From positions 1 to 64,000 of the forward strand of contig NZ_OMKA01000016.1 in assembly GCF_900299525.1 (NCBI RefSeq): DNA of 64,000 bases. Direction: 5' to 3'. The first letter of the stretch is position 1, and the number at the start of each line of letters is the position of its first letter. The notes below the pieces were generated by a model. That model worked only from the letters and a program-made list of their open reading frames with translations. It was not told where the DNA came from and ran no database searches. This stretch comes from Aquimarina sp. Aq78 (GTDB lineage Bacteria > Bacteroidota > Bacteroidia > Flavobacteriales > Flavobacteriaceae). The translations under genes were made by a program, and so were the position numbers. Of this stretch, positions 16,084 through 53,741 are shown piece by piece.

Positions 16084-16692
16084 TTACCCTAAATAAGACT
16101 TATACTTCTCCATACCTTTTGTAGTAAGGTATGGAAAGATTAAGTTATTTACATAAACTACATATTTATCTTTTAAATCAACATCTAAAAAATTCTTGGG
16201 ATGAAGATTTATAAAGAAAAAAGTACGCATTGCTCCACTTAAATCCATTAAATAATCTAAATCTTTATCGATTAACTCACCTCGCAATAATTCTTGAAGC
16301 TGTAACCTTTGTAAAATTTGCAAATATCCTTTTTTTCTATCTGCATTATCTTGTTCTAATTTTAAAGAAATATCTGTATAACTTCTCTTAATTTCTATAA
16401 AATCGACATAAAAAAACAAGTACTTTATTGAGATTTCAAAAGTAAATTTAGGAGCCTCTAATATGCCTTTTAATAAATTTTCATAATCAAATGTTTTTAA
16501 AATTTCTAAGATCTCGTTTTGCATATCTTCATATAAATTAAGAATCAATTGATTCTTTGTTTTAAAATGATATGTAACATTACCATAGCTAATACAAAGC
16601 TCTTTAGCAACCTCTCTTAACGTAACATTTCTAAACCCCTTATTATTAAAAAGCTCTCTAGCTGTATTTTTAATCTTGTCTTTTGTTTTCAT
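16084..16692 (-). CDS. TetR-family transcriptional regulator, 202 aa
   Basis: N-terminal TetR helix-turn-helix (TARELFNNKGFRNVTLREVA, then CISYGNVTYHFKTKNQLI) and a helical C-terminal ligand domain. It is divergent from the hydrolase at 16766 with 73 bp between them, and is a paralog of the TetR at 17935. The standard inference is that it represses the divergent hydrolase and itself. Confidence 0.85.
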   Translation of the reverse strand: MKTKDKIKNTARELFNNKGFRNVTLREVAKELCISYGNVTYHFKTKNQLILNLYEDMQNEILEILKTFDYENLLKGILEAPKFTFEISIKYLFFYVDFIEIKRSYTDISLKLEQDNADRKKGYLQILQRLQLQELLRGELIDKDLDYLMDLSGAMRTFFFINLHPKNFLDVDLKDKYVVYVNNLIFPYLTTKGMEKYKSYLG

Positions 16693-16710
16693 TATTTCAC
16701 AAAAATAGGC

Positions 16711-16727
16711 TATTTGGACTAATTTTG
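16711..16727 (+). promoter_or_regulatory. Putative TetR operator, module 1
   Basis: TATTTGGACTAATTTTG in the short divergent spacer resembles, in reverse orientation, the repeated TTTGTCCTAA-type sites of the second TetR/hydrolase module (TTnGGACnAATTT in both). Similarity is partial, so the call is tentative. Confidence 0.35.
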
Positions 16728-16765
16728 ATATATTTTAAATATCTTTGTTTTAAATTAAATTTACT

Positions 16766-17629
16766 GTGGCATCAATATACAAGAATAACCAGGCAAAAAC
16801 AGATCTAATGAATCTGTATGATGAAAAATTAAAAGATTTACAAATTGACTATACCAATATAGATGTTGACACAAAATTTGGAAGAACCAGAGTTGTAAAA
16901 ACAGGCAATTCTAAAGGAAAAAAAATTGTAATGTTTCACGGTTATAATGCTGGCGCACCAATTACGTTAGAGGCCATCAAAGGGATTTTAGACAAGTATT
17001 GTTTTTATGTTATTGAAACCATAGGACAAGCAACTAAGAGCGAAGAAACAATAATGAATATTAAAGATAATTCTTTTGCGCTATGGGTAGATGAAGTTTT
17101 GGAAAAATTAGAGATAAAAAAAGTAAATGTTGTTGGAATATCTTATGGTGCGTTTATCGTTGAAAAGCTAATAACTTATAAACCACAACGTATAGAAAAA
17201 TGTATTTTGGTAGTACCAAGCGGTATTGTAAATGGAAATATTTGGAAGTCCACAAAAAAACTTACTTTTCCGTTAATTAGATGGAGTATTACTAAAAAAG
17301 AAAAACATCTAAAATCTTTTTTAAGTGCATTTGTTCCTACTGAAGATGATTTTTTGTTCCAAATGTTAAGCCTAATAATGAAAGGTGTAAAATTAGACAC
17401 AAGAATACCTAAGTTATTAAAACCAAAAGAGGTTGAAAATTTTAAAGCTCCAGTATATGTAATTGCTGCTAAAGATGATATCTATTTTCCTGGAGAAAAA
17501 ATTGCTCAAAGAAGTAAAGAGTTATTTTCAAATTTAAAAGAAGTCCATCTTTTAGAAAACTCAAAACATATGCCTTCTAAAAATTCATACCCAATTATTC
17601 AAAAAAAAATAGTGGAATGGATAAACTAG
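16766..17629 (+). CDS. Alpha/beta hydrolase, 287 aa (module 1)
   Basis: Alpha/beta-hydrolase fold with VMFHGYNAG (oxyanion region), nucleophile elbow G124-I-S126-Y-G-A, acid in IAAKDDIYFPG and His in LENSKHMP. No signal peptide, so cytoplasmic. The GTG start at 16766 is supported by end-to-end alignment with the paralog at 18619 (ASIYKNNQ versus KSLYKSEF, and the elbow at identical residue numbers). Substrate unknown; the divergent TetR suggests induction by a small hydrophobic compound. Confidence 0.8.
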   Translation: MASIYKNNQAKTDLMNLYDEKLKDLQIDYTNIDVDTKFGRTRVVKTGNSKGKKIVMFHGYNAGAPITLEAIKGILDKYCFYVIETIGQATKSEETIMNIKDNSFALWVDEVLEKLEIKKVNVVGISYGAFIVEKLITYKPQRIEKCILVVPSGIVNGNIWKSTKKLTFPLIRWSITKKEKHLKSFLSAFVPTEDDFLFQMLSLIMKGVKLDTRIPKLLKPKEVENFKAPVYVIAAKDDIYFPGEKIAQRSKELFSNLKEVHLLENSKHMPSKNSYPIIQKKIVEWIN

Positions 17630-17860
17630 ACATTAAGAACTATAGATATTACAAACTGGTTTGCAATAATCTAAAAAATTAATTACTAAATCTATACGTA
17701 CTAGGAAAATCCTACAAATTCTCCCTTTGGTTTCTTTTCTTTTATTAATTTAGTTCCTAGCCAATCAAACTCTACACCAACCATGAGTTACACGTGAAAA
17801 AAATGAATTCTGAATGAAAAATGAGGAGATTATAGAACTATTAAAAAAATAAAAAGTCTA
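17630..17860. other. Intergenic stretch without a recognisable gene
   Basis: No coding frame longer than a few dozen codons and no convincing RNA or terminator is visible here. It is followed by a degenerate attC-like element, so it may be the remains of a decayed cassette. Confidence 0.4.
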
Positions 17861-17934
17861 TAGCAATTTATATGGTGTATGTGCCCTTATGGATGGATGC
17901 AAACAAACCATACTACAAAAGACGTTGTAACACC
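17861..17934 (+). repeat. Solitary attC-like remnant
   Basis: TATGGTGTATGTGCCCTTAT ... AACAAACCATACTACAAAAG, then GACGTTGTAACACC. The TATGGT/ACCATA arms pair and the right edge ends in ACGTT as in the array. The left AAC triplet is missing. It abuts the stop codon of the minus-strand TetR gene. Confidence 0.4.
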
Positions 17935-18564
17935 TCAATCAAAAAGATTTGGTAGTATTTTTTTAAATTCCTTTTGCCCTAGAGACGTAAGAAATGGATA
18001 CAACATACTTAAAAGTGTATTTACCTGATTATCTATATCATTTGAGTTAAATTTATTAAAGTATAACCTCGTAGAATATAGCCATGTGTTCCCATAACTA
18101 ATCATTCTTTCTGCCAAAAAATTATACTCCAATTCAAAAGACGAATCTCTCATTAAATTTTGATTTTTCATTTTTTCAAACAACAAAAAACAACCAGTGA
18201 TTCTGTTTTTATAAACTTCTTGAAAATGTTTTTTTACTTTTTCACTTACGGCTAAAAGATTGTATAAATCTGTCCAGAAGAATTTATAATCAATCATTCT
18301 TATCATACTTTGTTCAATATCATTCCTAATTTGTGTTACTGAGACTTCTGCATTTTTTAAGTTCTTTATTCTCTCATCAAATTCTGAAACCATCTCAAAA
18401 TATAAAGCTTCAAAAATATCCTCTCGCTTTTTATAATGGTAATTTAGATTTCCTGAACTCATGTCTAGTTTTAAAGCAATCATTCTTATGGTTACTTGAC
18501 TGTAACCCTTTTCATTAAATAAAGTTCTAGCAACTTCTAAAATTAATTTCTTCTTTTTGCTCAT
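17935..18564 (-). CDS. TetR-family transcriptional regulator, 209 aa
   Basis: TetR helix-turn-helix at the N-terminus (ARTLFNEKGYSQVTIRMIA, LDMSSGNLNYHYKKREDI) and a helical ligand-binding domain. Clearly homologous to the TetR at 16084, sharing the divergent arrangement with an alpha/beta hydrolase. Its start codon overlaps the first of two direct repeats, which suits autorepression. Confidence 0.85.
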   Translation of the reverse strand: MSKKKKLILEVARTLFNEKGYSQVTIRMIALKLDMSSGNLNYHYKKREDIFEALYFEMVSEFDERIKNLKNAEVSVTQIRNDIEQSMIRMIDYKFFWTDLYNLLAVSEKVKKHFQEVYKNRITGCFLLFEKMKNQNLMRDSSFELEYNFLAERMISYGNTWLYSTRLYFNKFNSNDIDNQVNTLLSMLYPFLTSLGQKEFKKILPNLFD

Positions 18565-18611
18565 TAGTAAACTTGTCCTAAAAAATTAATATTAGTAAAT
18601 TTGTCCTAAAA
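18563..18611 (+). promoter_or_regulatory. Tandem operator, TetR/hydrolase module 2
   Basis: Two 21-bp direct repeats, ATTAGTAAACTTGTCCTAAA(A) at 18563-18583 and ATTAGTAAATTTGTCCTAAA(A) at 18591-18611, differ at one base and start 28 bp apart. Each has TTAG...CTAA ends. Together they fill the 54-bp spacer between the divergent start codons, as expected for an operator bound by two TetR dimers. Confidence 0.6.
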
Positions 18612-18618
18612 TTACAAA

Positions 18619-19476
18619 ATGAAATCATTATACAAATCAGAATTTGGAAGAAATGAAATACTAAATCTTTATAATGAAAAATTAAATGATTTAGAAATAG
18701 AATTTGAAAACAAGGTTATTGACACCAATTTCGGAAAAACCAATATCATTATAGTCGGTAATTCTATAAAGCCACCTTTACTTTTAGTTCATGGGTCTAA
18801 TGGTTGCGCTCCCATCGCTTTAGAAACCTACCCTACTCTTTATAAAGAGTATCAGGTATTTGCTATAGATGTACTGGCACAACCTAATAAAAGTGCTGAA
18901 ATCAGATTAAATATGAAAGATGAAAGTTATGGTTTATGGATAAACGATATTATCAATAAATTAGAGTTGAAAAATGTAACTATGGTTGGTTTCTCTTTCG
19001 GGGGGCTAATAATTCTCAAAACTTTGATTCAAAATCAAAGCAATATAAAAGAGGTATTCTTATCTGCACCCGCATTTATTGTAAATGGAAATCCTCTTAT
19101 TGCTCTATTCAAGGTATTCGTTCCTATGAAACGATATATAAAAACTAAAAACACAAAATATCTGGAAAAATTCTTGGAAGTCCTTTTTTCTGAAAGAGAT
19201 GAATTTGCTCTTAACTACTTATCGAAAGTTTTTTTACATTTTAAAATGGACTTTACTCCTGTTCCAACAATAAAAAAAGAAGAAGCTCAATCAATAAAAA
19301 CTCCAATTACTATAATCGCTGCAAAAAAAGATATTATGTTTCCTGGTAAAAAAATGATAAAACGAGCAAACAAAATTTTCCCTACTTTGAAGAAAACCAT
19401 TTTACTGGAAAATTCGAAACACGTCCAAAATAGAATCGATAATAGGAAAATAGAAAAATTGATATTAAAAGAATAA
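18619..19476 (+). CDS. Alpha/beta hydrolase, 285 aa (module 2)
   Basis: Paralog of the hydrolase at 16766: LLVHGSNG, nucleophile elbow G124-F-S126-F-G-G, acid region IAAKKDIMFPG and terminal LENSKHVQ. Cytoplasmic, no signal peptide. It begins 8 bp after the second operator repeat, so repression by the divergent TetR would be tight. The two modules look like a local duplication that has diverged well past DNA-level identity. Confidence 0.8.
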   Translation: MKSLYKSEFGRNEILNLYNEKLNDLEIEFENKVIDTNFGKTNIIIVGNSIKPPLLLVHGSNGCAPIALETYPTLYKEYQVFAIDVLAQPNKSAEIRLNMKDESYGLWINDIINKLELKNVTMVGFSFGGLIILKTLIQNQSNIKEVFLSAPAFIVNGNPLIALFKVFVPMKRYIKTKNTKYLEKFLEVLFSERDEFALNYLSKVFLHFKMDFTPVPTIKKEEAQSIKTPITIIAAKKDIMFPGKKMIKRANKIFPTLKKTILLENSKHVQNRIDNRKIEKLILKE

Positions 19477-20752: not shown

Positions 20753-20918
20753 TATATTAAAATGAAATTTACTAAATATTCCTTATAAAAGTAGTAAAGA
20801 GATTACCGTATATGTACGTATATATTAAGGTACTTATACTAATATGAGATTGATTTGGGGTTAGTATATTGGTTATTGCGCTTATTTATAAGTACAAACC
20901 AATATTAAAACCAAAACT

Positions 20919-22316
20919 ATGACACAAAGTATTAATTCATCCAACATTAAGCCAATTACCATCTCCAATAATTTGTTTATGTGCGGTACAGATCAGTGGG
21001 CTCCAAAAGGAGTATGTTATCAACCTACAGATTTTGTAGACCCAATTTCAGACAATAATCTAACTACTATTCAAGACTTATTGAAAACAACAACAACTTA
21101 CGGGTTCACAAACATGAAAATAAACGCCATTCGTGTTTATCAAGTTGATCCAACAAAAGATCACACAAAAGTCATGAATGCTTTGGCTGCTGCAGGAATT
21201 TATGTTTTAGTAGGTGCTGTGGATCACACAACAGTACATGACGGTCCTACAGTGTATAACGCCCGATTGAAAGCTATTGCTGATGAATTCTGTAAATACC
21301 AGAATGTTCTGGGATTTTCAATAGGAAACGAAACAATTGATCCTGGTAAAGAAGGACAAAATCCAGGTTACGATATTCCAAATAAAATTAAAGCCGGGGC
21401 CAAATACTTGAAAGCCTATATGGCAAAAAATTGTGCTCGTACTGTTCCCGTTACTGCAGCACTTCGTGATGATCCTGATTTCACTATACCTGCAGCTAAA
21501 GCGTACATGTGTGGGGACGCATCAGAACGTCTTGATTTCTTAGGCTACAATTGTGAGCGTTGGGCTGGAGGAACACTCGCAGCAAAAGTTGGCGCTTATT
21601 ATACATTAACAAAAGCATTTGAAGGCTCTAACCCAGTGCCGATAACTTTTACTGAAATGGGTTCGAATCCAAGAGCTGTCTCTCCAAGAACTTGGCAACA
21701 AGTTGACTATTTGTATGGAGGTACGAAACTCACGCCACAATCAGGATCAGGCTCGCCAATAAATATGGCAGATGTCGTTTCGGGTGGCTTTGCTTTTAGA
21801 TATTATGAGCGAAATGCTGGATGGGGTATGCTCACAACAAGCGGTGACGAAATTCCTGATCACGGCGCAAAATCAATCATTACAGAATATTCTAAAATAA
21901 CATCCTTTAGCAGTACAGGAAATACAATGGGGACTGCTCCTTGTGATAAAAATAACCCATATGTAAAAGGATCTGCTATTCCATCATCAGGATTACCAAC
22001 GGCTGTAAAAGTAACATTAACAAATTCTATTACAACACCTGCTACAGGAAGAAATATCAAATTTAATTATACATCAAATGTAAATGCTGCTAACCCAACT
22101 TGGCTTGAAGCGGTTGCTATCAAAGCAAATGGTCCCAAAACAACATTCACCTTTCCTGCAGGTACAAATGGGATTTCAATGATTTATGAAGTTGATTCTA
22201 AGTGGGATCAAGGCTGTCAATTAAAGGGTCAAGCTTTACTCCAACTCGCAGATGGAGATACTATCCAAGGTAATTGGATGAGCCCAAATGGTAATGGAAG
22301 TTGTGCGATTAGCTAA
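20919..22316 (+). CDS. GH72-type beta-1,3-glucanosyltransferase-like protein, 465 aa
   Basis: Residues about 10-335 match the GH72 (Gas/Gel/Phr) TIM barrel: KGVCYQP, a DPTKDH preceded by IRVYQV, AAAGIYVLVGAV, the acid/base E138 in FSIGNETI and the nucleophile E246 in ITFTEMGSNPR, with SGGFAFRYYE near the barrel end. GH72 enzymes cut and rejoin beta-1,3-glucan and are mainly fungal. Residues 350-465 form a separate beta-rich domain with Cys residues. I see no signal peptide at this ATG. G+C is visibly higher than in the neighbours, which suggests transfer, possibly from a eukaryote. Confidence 0.75.
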   Translation: MTQSINSSNIKPITISNNLFMCGTDQWAPKGVCYQPTDFVDPISDNNLTTIQDLLKTTTTYGFTNMKINAIRVYQVDPTKDHTKVMNALAAAGIYVLVGAVDHTTVHDGPTVYNARLKAIADEFCKYQNVLGFSIGNETIDPGKEGQNPGYDIPNKIKAGAKYLKAYMAKNCARTVPVTAALRDDPDFTIPAAKAYMCGDASERLDFLGYNCERWAGGTLAAKVGAYYTLTKAFEGSNPVPITFTEMGSNPRAVSPRTWQQVDYLYGGTKLTPQSGSGSPINMADVVSGGFAFRYYERNAGWGMLTTSGDEIPDHGAKSIITEYSKITSFSSTGNTMGTAPCDKNNPYVKGSAIPSSGLPTAVKVTLTNSITTPATGRNIKFNYTSNVNAANPTWLEAVAIKANGPKTTFTFPAGTNGISMIYEVDSKWDQGCQLKGQALLQLADGDTIQGNWMSPNGNGSCAIS

Positions 22317-22362
22317 AACTTAATATTCATACTCTATAAAAGTATAGTAAAGGATATCATTC

Positions 22363-22402
22363 AAAAACATAAACATCATTAATCTAGGTGTTTATGTTTT
22401 TT
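22363..22402 (+). terminator. Rho-independent terminator
   Basis: AAAACATAAACA pairs with TGTTTATGTTTT around a short loop, followed by a T run. It lies about 50 bp after the GH72-like gene. Confidence 0.65.
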
Positions 22403-22440
22403 AAACTCTCGAACATATCTCCAATCAATGCTATGAACAG

Positions 22441-22606: not shown

Positions 22607-23098
22607 ATGAAATATACACCCGAAGATGGATTCCCATATTATTATGACTTTGTAAAGAATATGAATTATCAATCACTCTTTTCTTCGTCATCAACGATAG
22701 AATTTCTAAATTCTATTGGTGAGGAAAAAGCTATTTATCGTTATGCACCCACTAAATGGAATATTAAACAAATTGTAGGTCATATAACAGATCACGAAAG
22801 AATAAAAATATTTCGAGCATTTTTAATGAGTAGAAACGAATCAATAGAACTATGGGGCTATGACCAAAATTTATTAGTGAAAAATAGTCGTTTTGAAGAA
22901 TTAACACTCAAACAATTAATAGCAGATTTTGTAAATGTAAGAAAGGCATCTACTAGTTTTATTGAGACATTATCTAAAAGTCAATTAAAGATAAAAGGTA
23001 TGGCCCAACAATATGAAATTACTCTTGAAGATTTTCTAAAGTCTATAATTGGTCATGAAAAACATCATATTACTATTATTAAAGAAAGATACATTTAA
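22607..23098 (+). CDS. DinB-like superfamily protein, 163 aa
   Basis: A DinB_2-type four-helix protein with metal-ligand histidines in KQIVGHITDHERI (about residues 59-71) and in SIIGHEKHHITII near the C-terminus. The RYAPTKWNIKQIVGH signature is characteristic of this subgroup of putative metal-dependent hydrolases/thiol transferases. It stands alone between a repeat remnant and an AraC gene; no target pathway is evident. Confidence 0.85.
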   Translation: MKYTPEDGFPYYYDFVKNMNYQSLFSSSSTIEFLNSIGEEKAIYRYAPTKWNIKQIVGHITDHERIKIFRAFLMSRNESIELWGYDQNLLVKNSRFEELTLKQLIADFVNVRKASTSFIETLSKSQLKIKGMAQQYEITLEDFLKSIIGHEKHHITIIKERYI

Positions 23099-23236: not shown

Positions 23237-24097
23237 ATGACTTTGAAATACCACCATATGCCAATAGACAATATACCAGAATTATATATTAATAACCCTA
23301 AACTTAAACCTGATCTTTTTGTCTACGATTTTAAAATGACCGAGGACATCATTAAAACTAAGGTCAACCTAAATATGCATATGTTTAGCTTTTTACAAGT
23401 CGGAAAAAAGCAAGTACACTTTGCAGGAACATCGGTTACTGTAAATAAAGATCAATCGTTACTTCTTAAAAAAGGAAATTGGCTTTGGACAGAATTACTG
23501 GATACAGATGCTATTTATTACTGTAAGCTCTTATTTTTTTCTGAAAAAATACTCAAAGATTTTTTAGATAAACACATACAAAATCAACAAATAACAAAGG
23601 AAGAAGTGCCTTATTTTGCAATTAGAAATGATGCTTACATAACTTCTTATTTAAATTCATTATCAACAATTAGTGATGCGCCAACTGTTTTTATAGAAAA
23701 CTTACTTTCTGTAAAATTTGAAGAAATTATGCTTTACCTTATTCATAAATATGGAAAAAAGTTTGAATTATATTTAAGATCATTAATCGTTGAAGAAACC
23801 TCTCCTTTCAAAAAAATTATCGAGAGTAAAATACATTCCAATCTAAAATTAGAGGAAATTGCATTTTTATGTAATATGAGTTTATCTACTTTTAAACGTC
23901 ATTTTATTAATGAGTATAAAGCATCTCCAGGAAAATGGTTACAAGACAAGCGACTTCAAAAAGCAAAAGAAGCATTAGAACTAGGAAAATTAACACCATC
24001 AGATATATACTTGGATTTTGGTTATAATAACCTTTCAAACTTCAGCACAGCTTTTAAAAATAAATTTGGGTTTAGTCCCAAAGAAATTTCCAGATGA
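23237..24097 (+). CDS. AraC-family transcriptional regulator, 286 aa
   Basis: An N-terminal cupin-like sensor (about 20-110) and a C-terminal double helix-turn-helix: KLEEIAFLCNMSLSTFKRHF and the LDFGYNNLSNFSTAFKNKFG signature, ending GFSPKEIS. It reads towards the HbpS/GlcG-like gene at 24231, which has its own promoter, so it is a candidate activator of that gene. Confidence 0.85.
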   Translation: MTLKYHHMPIDNIPELYINNPKLKPDLFVYDFKMTEDIIKTKVNLNMHMFSFLQVGKKQVHFAGTSVTVNKDQSLLLKKGNWLWTELLDTDAIYYCKLLFFSEKILKDFLDKHIQNQQITKEEVPYFAIRNDAYITSYLNSLSTISDAPTVFIENLLSVKFEEIMLYLIHKYGKKFELYLRSLIVEETSPFKKIIESKIHSNLKLEEIAFLCNMSLSTFKRHFINEYKASPGKWLQDKRLQKAKEALELGKLTPSDIYLDFGYNNLSNFSTAFKNKFGFSPKEISR

Positions 24098-24187
24098 CAT
24101 TTCATCTTTTTAATTTCATTTTTATACTTGACCTTTTTTCATAAGTTATTGAACTGTTTTAGTAATTGAATAATATTATCTACACTG

Positions 24188-24195
24188 TAAATTTG
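24188..24195 (+). promoter_or_regulatory. Bacteroidota -7 promoter element
   Basis: TAAATTTG matches the TAnnTTTG -7 consensus and lies 36 bp before the start codon at 24231. A clear -33 TTG box is not distinguishable. Confidence 0.45.
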
Positions 24196-24230
24196 TACTC
24201 AAATTATAACAAAAATTAAAACATAAAATA

Positions 24231-24632
24231 ATGAATATTACATTAGCACAAGCTGAAAAAATTATTTCGGCAGCAAAAGAAAAATCTATAGCGATCGATA
24301 CAAAAATGAATATTGCAATTGTAGATGCAGGAGCTAACTTAGTAGCATTTGGACGTATGGATGGAGCTTGGTTAGGTTCTTTAGATATATCAATTAAAAA
24401 AGCTAAAACGGCTCGTTATTTTGATATGAATACAGGCATTATTGGCGAATTGTCTCAACCAGGAGGTGCTTTGTACAACATCGAGCACTCAAATAATGGT
24501 CTAATTACTTTTCCTGGTGGTGTACCAATTAAGAACATAGCAGGTGAAATCATTGGCGCTATTGGAGTAAGTGGAAGTTCTGTTGAAAATGACCATGCAG
24601 TGGCAGAAGCTGGTGCATCAGCAGCAATCTAA
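24231..24632 (+). CDS. HbpS/GlcG-like (DUF336) protein, 133 aa
   Basis: A full-length member of the heme-binding/GlcG family: [15 protein letters not shown] helix, [20 protein letters not shown], then [12 protein letters not shown], and the terminal GGVPIK ... [20 protein letters not shown]. Streptomyces HbpS binds heme and senses redox stress; GlcG homologs are accessory proteins of glycolate or diol catabolism. The role here is not evident. A terminator directly follows, so it is transcribed alone. Confidence 0.85.
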
Positions 24633-53576: not shown

Positions 53577-53741
53577 AAAAAAAGCCTGCACTAGCAAAGG
53601 TTTTGTATAAACTCTGTAAAAACAGGTTTAGGGCTAACAAGTTGCTCAAGAATCCGCTCAAGGCGGCGCGCTTTTACAACTTAAACTCACCCTTTTTAAT
53701 TAATTCTTGTTGAGTTTATCAAAATAACAACTAGTGCAGGC
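53577..53741 (-). ncRNA. ssrS: 6S-like RNA (6S-Flavo candidate)
   Basis: Read on the minus strand, a perfect 11-bp closing stem GCCTGCACTAG (53731-53741) / CTAGTGCAGGC (53584-53594) encloses about 135 nt and is followed directly by seven U residues. A GC-rich internal hairpin (AGCGCGCCGCCTTGAGCGG) and a large unpaired centre match the 6S plan. It lies just after zapA, the classic 6S neighbour in Proteobacteria. I know of a flavobacterial 6S class (6S-Flavo) but cannot run the covariance model. Confidence 0.65.

What the first reader, a model, noticed from the sequence alone, without database searches (positions are those of the whole stretch)
20919..22316. GH72 glucanosyltransferase-like enzyme, a mainly fungal family, in a flavobacterium
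Seen: the GH72 signatures KGVCYQP, IRVYQVDPTKDH, GNET with E138 and TEMG with E246, a distinct C-terminal beta domain, no signal peptide, and G+C above the neighbours. Known: GH72 (Gas/Gel/Phr) remodels beta-1,3-glucan in fungal walls. Inference: interdomain transfer, perhaps for attacking or mimicking fungal or algal glucans.
Basis: partly seen in the sequence, partly recalled or inferred. Interest (0 to 1): 0.62.

Follow-up and report, generated by a model that had tools for sequence, protein, structure and literature searches.

The report
Fungal-type glucan enzyme in marine Aquimarina
A small group of marine Aquimarina bacteria carries a relative of the enzymes that fungi use to remodel their cell-wall glucan, altered in its active site, lacking an export signal and joined to a tail domain also found on another odd protein, so it looks like a borrowed and reworked tool for handling glucans of algae or fungi.

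Summary
The ORF at 20919-22316 is real and under strong purifying selection. It matches Pfam GH72 over nearly the whole profile (150 bits) and keeps both catalytic glutamates, E138 and E246. The genome is an Aquimarina.

The gene is rare: 7 of 66 Aquimarina genomes have it full length. In two samples of Bacteroidota (395 and 299 genomes) only the window's own genome gave a near-full-length match. Four weaker GH72 hits that I checked fit GH2 or GH5 better. The raised G+C is no transfer signal, as third-position G+C is ordinary. A decayed GH72 with a signal-peptide-like start on a Thiodictyon plasmid shows that bacterial GH72 is not confined to Aquimarina.

It is not a standard glucanosyltransferase. 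Two of three conserved active-site tyrosines are replaced (E213, F293), CBM43 is absent, and there is no signal peptide. Its C-terminal domain (residues 354-465) recurs at 61% identity in one other Aquimarina, on a ricin-lectin protein that also lacks a signal peptide.

Best reading: a laterally acquired, divergent GH72 enzyme acting on beta-1,3-glucan, as likely a hydrolase as a transferase, exported by a non-Sec route or used inside the cell. Donor and direction of transfer are untested, because no fungal or oomycete collection was available.

The parts
20919..22316 (+). ORF, 465 aa, GH72-domain protein with its own C-terminal domain
   Evidence: orthologues 93-96% identical in 6 further Aquimarina genomes; dN/dS 0.053-0.086
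20934..21851 (+). GH72 domain, residues 6-311
   Evidence: PF03198, 150.1 bits
21330..21332 (+). codon of E138, predicted acid/base
   Evidence: aligned with Gas2 E176; role in PMC5753161
21654..21656 (+). codon of E246, predicted nucleophile
   Evidence: aligned with Gas2 E275; role in PMC5753161
21555..21557 (+). codon of E213, at the place of the conserved tyrosine beside the nucleophile (Gas2 Y244)
   Evidence: Tyr in both Gas2 and the 8pe2 chain; invariant in 6 orthologues
21795..21797 (+). codon of F293, at the place of the third conserved tyrosine (Gas2 Y307)
   Evidence: invariant in 6 orthologues
21978..22313 (+). C-terminal domain, residues 354-465, predicted beta-sandwich, shared with a ricin-lectin protein of Aquimarina G741
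   Evidence: 61% identity, E 4.2e-40 (alignment); model pLDDT 74.5; no Pfam hit
20803..20918 (+). upstream stretch conserved in the six carriers aligned, probable promoter or 5' leader
   Evidence: alignment; inverted repeats; no second copy in the own genome at E<0.05
22360..22404 (+). inverted repeat followed by T run, terminator-like
22607..23098 (+). DinB_2 protein, next gene in all 7 carriers
23237..24632 (+). AraC-type regulator and HbpS-like gene, conserved right flank, also present without GH72 in 7 non-carriers examined

Best explanation
A divergent GH72 enzyme that cuts beta-1,3-glucan by the retaining two-glutamate mechanism of its family, acquired once by the ancestor of a small Aquimarina clade. 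Shown: the GH72 domain, both catalytic glutamates, purifying selection, the restricted distribution, the missing signal peptide, the loss of two active-site tyrosines and of most fungal cysteines, and a C-terminal domain shared with an otherwise unrelated protein. Inferred: the substrate is beta-1,3-glucan (laminarin, chrysolaminarin, fungal or oomycete wall); E246 attacks the chain and E138 gives and takes the proton; because the tyrosine network that tunes transfer in fungal enzymes is broken, hydrolysis is at least as likely as transglycosylation; the C-terminal beta-sandwich is a binding or targeting module; the protein works outside the cell after a route other than Sec, or else on imported oligosaccharides in the cytoplasm.
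For: GH72 profile match; catalytic residues; tyrosines and cysteines (roles in PMC5753161 passages); dN/dS; 7 of 66 Aquimarina carry it full length; near-full-length match only in the own genome among 395 and 299 sampled genomes; 4 of 4 weaker PF03198 hits checked fit GH2 or GH5 better; carriers fall on one side of a branch in a tree of two flanking genes; shared C-terminal domain; PDB matches are fungal-type glucanosyltransferases such as Gas2.
Against: No activity data. The full-length model failed (mean pLDDT 33.2), so the barrel and active site were not modelled. The carrier branch has modest support (79/84) in a two-gene tree with 7 of the 59 other genus genomes. The C-terminal fold matched common beta-sandwiches only, so 'binding module' is a guess. 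No laminarin locus or other glucan gene was seen in the genes checked beside it.
Confidence: 0.6

Rival explanations
1. A canonical glucanosyltransferase (Gas/Gel/Phr type) received from a fungus or oomycete, which elongates beta-1,3-glucan and is used to mimic or rebuild eukaryotic wall glucan.
For: GH72 profile and catalytic glutamates; the PDB matches are glucanosyltransferases, 32% identity over 247 residues to the Gas2 stretch.
Against: Tyr244 and Tyr307 of Gas2 are Glu and Phe here, and PMC5753161 states that replacing such tyrosines affects transglycosylation (passage); three of four Gas2 cysteines in the aligned stretch are lost; no CBM43 hit; no secretion signal; GC3 ordinary, so no sign of recent transfer.
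Confidence: 0.15
2. [quoted passage not shown]
For: No signal peptide in the window protein or in 5 orthologues; cysteines 125 and 172 vary among orthologues.
Against: The gene does not sit in a carbohydrate locus: the neighbours scanned are GNAT, DinB_2, AraC, HbpS and a methyltransferase. The partner protein with the same C-terminal domain has a ricin-type lectin domain, which suggests contact with outside glycans. Two cysteines of the C-terminal domain are kept in the partner, which would suit a disulfide outside the cytoplasm.
Confidence: 0.2
3. A cargo of the contractile injection particles of Aquimarina, which carry the enzyme to a walled eukaryote.
For: The own genome has a locus with Pvc16_N, sheath, tail tube, CIS_tube, baseplate, PAAR and gp25 genes. 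All 7 carriers have a PF04984 match at E<=0.001, 5 of 7 above the cut-off. Two carriers, A. atlantica and Aquimarina sp. AU58, supplied predicted injection-system toxins in PMC11297309, one of them toxic to yeast (passage).
Against: PF04984 matches occur in 49 of 66 Aquimarina genomes, so presence does not discriminate; in G000 the only match lies on another contig than GH72; no DUF4157 or other cargo domain was found.
Confidence: 0.1

Closest known systems
Fungal GH72 beta-1,3-glucanosyltransferases (Gas2 of yeast, PDB 2w62; chain 8pe2)
   Same: GH72 domain, both catalytic glutamates, Asn before the acid/base, first conserved tyrosine (Y74)
   Different: Glu and Phe replace the second and third conserved tyrosines; 3 of 4 Gas2 cysteines in the aligned stretch lost; no CBM43 hit, no signal peptide, a different C-terminal domain
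Decayed GH72 on plasmid pTs485 of Candidatus Thiodictyon syntrophicum
   Same: bacterial GH72, N-terminal 128 residues match PF03198 with 103.8 bits; 31% identity to the window protein over 135 residues
   Different: begins with a signal-peptide-like stretch and its frame is interrupted by stops
Ricin-lectin protein of Aquimarina G741 (L090, 450 aa)
   Same: the C-terminal domain, 61% identity; no N-terminal signal
   Different: N-terminal ricin-type lectin and a middle domain unrelated to GH72, without a Pfam or PDB match

Membership tests
GH72 sequence family (Pfam PF03198) | profile match above the curated cut-off over most of the profile | tested here: met
   150.1 bits, positions 5-296 of 314, cut-off 25.9
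GH72 sequence family (Pfam PF03198) | two catalytic glutamates about 100 residues apart | tested here: met
   E138 and E246 align with Gas2 E176 and E275 (roles)
GH72 sequence family (Pfam PF03198) | (beta/alpha)8 barrel fold | tested here: inconclusive
   model failed, mean pLDDT 33.2
Canonical fungal GH72 glucanosyltransferase (Gas/Gel/Phr) | three conserved tyrosines around the active site | tested here: not met
   Y74 kept; E213 and F293 at the other two places
Canonical fungal GH72 glucanosyltransferase (Gas/Gel/Phr) | conserved cysteine pattern with disulfides | tested here: not met
   of four Gas2 cysteines in the aligned stretch 94-323 only C231 is kept, as C198
Canonical fungal GH72 glucanosyltransferase (Gas/Gel/Phr) | secretion signal | tested here: not met
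Canonical fungal GH72 glucanosyltransferase (Gas/Gel/Phr) | beta-1,3-glucan transfer activity | not testable with these tools
   needs an assay
GH72+ subfamily | CBM43/X8 domain | tested here: not met
   no X8 match at E<=0.01 in the whole protein or at E<=1 in the C-terminal part
Contractile injection system cargo | carrier has the injection system | tested here: met
   locus in G000; PF04984 match in 7 of 7 carriers
Contractile injection system cargo | gene near the injection locus | tested here: not met
   GH72 on contig C25, only sheath match of G000 on C27

The most novel reading that the evidence does not exclude
The C-terminal domain is a delivery or docking tag that sends signal-less enzymes (a GH72 glucanase in one Aquimarina clade, a ricin-lectin protein with a GH16-like ExDxxE motif in another species) out of the cell, perhaps in contractile injection particles, to open beta-glucan walls of algae, fungi or oomycetes.
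Probability: 0.1. Interest if true: 0.75.

Novelty: new variant of a known kind. Interest (0 to 1): 0.42.

Why it matters
GH72 is known as the enzyme family with which fungi lengthen and branch wall beta-1,3-glucan. A conserved, selected bacterial version with two of the three transfer-related tyrosines replaced is a natural test of what makes a GH72 enzyme transfer rather than hydrolyse. The shared C-terminal domain on two unrelated signal-less proteins gives a handle on how Aquimarina, which live among algae and marine animals, deliver such enzymes. It also shows that weak GH72 annotations in bacteria need checking: four of four weaker hits examined here fit GH2 or GH5 better.

Tried and rejected
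Recent transfer by composition: rejected, GC3 ordinary. Broad GH72 presence in Bacteroidota: PF03198 rang at E<=0.001 in 30 of 395 and 54 of 299 genomes, own genome included, but all matches other than the own one were partial and at most 34.2 bits; I checked four proteins and all four fit GH2 or GH5 better. Plasmid and phage origin: no match at E<=1e-5 in plasmids or phages, one plasmid match at E<=10 (Thiodictyon); no relative in viral contigs with the full protein, the Thiodictyon stretch, the C-terminal alignment or the partner's middle domain, none in phages for that middle domain. One weak match in genus genome G761 (25% identity, 85 residues, stops inside) was set aside as chance.

Fold of the C-terminal domain: Foldseek's best rows were domain-4-like parts of cytolysins and the human HGSNAT lumenal domain, TM about 0.4-0.6; VIA-align Z up to 9.3 for HGSNAT, then PepT2, TssJ-type lipoproteins and transthyretin; viral models gave uncharacterised proteins. 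I read this as a common beta-sandwich without functional meaning. Sequence searches of the PDB with the C-terminal alignment gave only E 0.056 or worse.

Middle domain of the partner protein: it holds EVDFIE, which resembles the GH16 ExDxxE motif (recalled, not from a call). Pfam, NCBIfam, PHROGs and PDB searches gave no GH16 match, so it is called GH16-like by motif only. It has a relative, 48% identity, on an Undibacterium plasmid, occurs in 1 of 66 Aquimarina genomes and in 0 of 395 sampled genomes (the tool warns that without a positive control this is weak).

Literature: searches showed no description of this protein; most papers were seen only in listings. Passages were seen in PMC5706468 (lists GH72 for Arcobacter, Vibrio and other marine bacteria by annotation), PMC5753161, PMC4102429 and PMC11297309.

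Not done: a tree with fungal, oomycete and other bacterial GH72, since only Bacteroidota genomes, plasmids, phages, viral contigs and PDB sequences could be reached at that depth; the single genome-contig scan found only close Aquimarina relatives.

Full report
What is there. The ORF at 20919-22316 is intact, 465 codons with an ATG start. Pfam finds one family, PF03198 (GH72), 150.1 bits over residues 6-311. In the PDB the only sequence matches at E<=10 are five glucanosyltransferase sequences, among them yeast Gas2. The own genome has one such gene.

Is it functional? dN/dS is 0.053-0.086 in all ten pairs of five orthologues. The catalytic pair is kept: E138 and E246 align with E176 and E275 of Gas2, the acid/base and nucleophile according to PMC5753161 (passages). 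Of the three conserved tyrosines that this review describes for Phr2p (mapped to Gas2 Y107, Y244 and Y307 by constant offset, my inference), the first is kept as Y74; the second is E213 and the third F293. The 8pe2 chain has tyrosine at both of these places, and E213 and F293 are invariant in six orthologues. The review says the second tyrosine lies within 2 A of the nucleophile in the Phr2p model and that replacing such tyrosines in Gel2p affected transglycosylation. So transfer activity cannot be assumed. Of four Gas2 cysteines in the aligned stretch one is kept, and no CBM43 was found.

Where is the protein? In-frame stops lie 3 to 11 codons upstream of the ATG in six sequences, and the start is not hydrophobic. 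Sec export, and with it the type IX system (recalled: it needs a Sec signal), is therefore unlikely. The own genome has an injection-type locus with Pvc16_N, sheath, tube, CIS_tube, baseplate, PAAR and gp25 genes, but sheath matches occur in 49 of 66 Aquimarina genomes, and in G000 the locus is on another contig, so this is only a possible route.

The C-terminal domain. Residues 354-465 match at 61% identity the C-terminus of a 450-aa protein of Aquimarina G741, which has an N-terminal ricin-type lectin domain and a middle domain with the string EVDFIE, GH16-like by motif only (searches found no GH16). That protein also lacks an N-terminal signal. The domain was found in 8 of 66 Aquimarina genomes (7 with GH72 and G741) and, in a sample of 395 Bacteroidota genomes, only in the own one. 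The model, mean pLDDT 74.5, is a beta-sandwich that resembles many unrelated ones.

How did it get there? Full-length GH72 is in 7 of 66 Aquimarina genomes. All seven share the order GH72, DinB, AraC, HbpS. The left neighbour differs: GNAT in the window and G029, an AraC-type 470-aa gene in G004 and G752, another gene in G002. Seven non-carriers examined have AraC-HbpS without GH72 or DinB beside it; in G020 the alpha/beta-hydrolase gene and AraC are 147 bases apart, where the window has 3,760 bases holding a methyltransferase, GNAT, GH72 and DinB. In a tree of AraC plus HbpS from these 14 genomes the carriers fall on one side of one branch, support 79/84, 81% of bootstrap trees: one gain is favoured but not proven. 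GC3 of the gene is ordinary, so the gain is old or the donor alike in composition.

Outside Aquimarina. The weaker PF03198 hits in Bacteroidota are partial; four of four checked are GH2 or GH5 barrels. The control genomes ring in Thermotoga maritima only, not examined further. On plasmids, Candidatus Thiodictyon has an interrupted GH72 with a signal-peptide-like start. Phyla other than Bacteroidota could not be searched genome-wide, so the donor is open: fungus, oomycete, alga or another bacterium.

Verdict. The most interesting parts are the changed active site and the tail domain shared between two unrelated proteins without signal peptides.

Noticed in passing
L049:2758-3754 (plasmid pTs485 of Candidatus Thiodictyon syntrophicum): An interrupted GH72 gene with a signal-peptide-like start, annotated as hypothetical proteins, beside gas-vesicle and carbonic-anhydrase genes.
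   Followed up: partly
L107:10222-11574 (Aquimarina G741): A signal-less protein of ricin-type lectin, an unknown middle domain with EVDFIE, and the same C-terminal domain as the GH72 protein.
   Followed up: partly
L105:5626-6684 (Undibacterium plasmid pUYM01): A protein with the same middle domain as the G741 protein at 48% identity, near an annotated Avs1c anti-phage gene.
   Followed up: no
G000:C27, locus L117:4689-19776: A contractile injection locus: Pvc16_N, sheath, two tail tubes, CIS_tube, spike base, PAAR, gp25, baseplate J.
   Followed up: partly
window 16084-19476: Two side-by-side pairs of a divergently transcribed TetR-like regulator and an alpha/beta-hydrolase-like gene (names by eye), perhaps a tandem duplication.
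   Followed up: no
window 53609-53715, minus strand: 6S-Flavo RNA, 112.4 bits.
   Followed up: no
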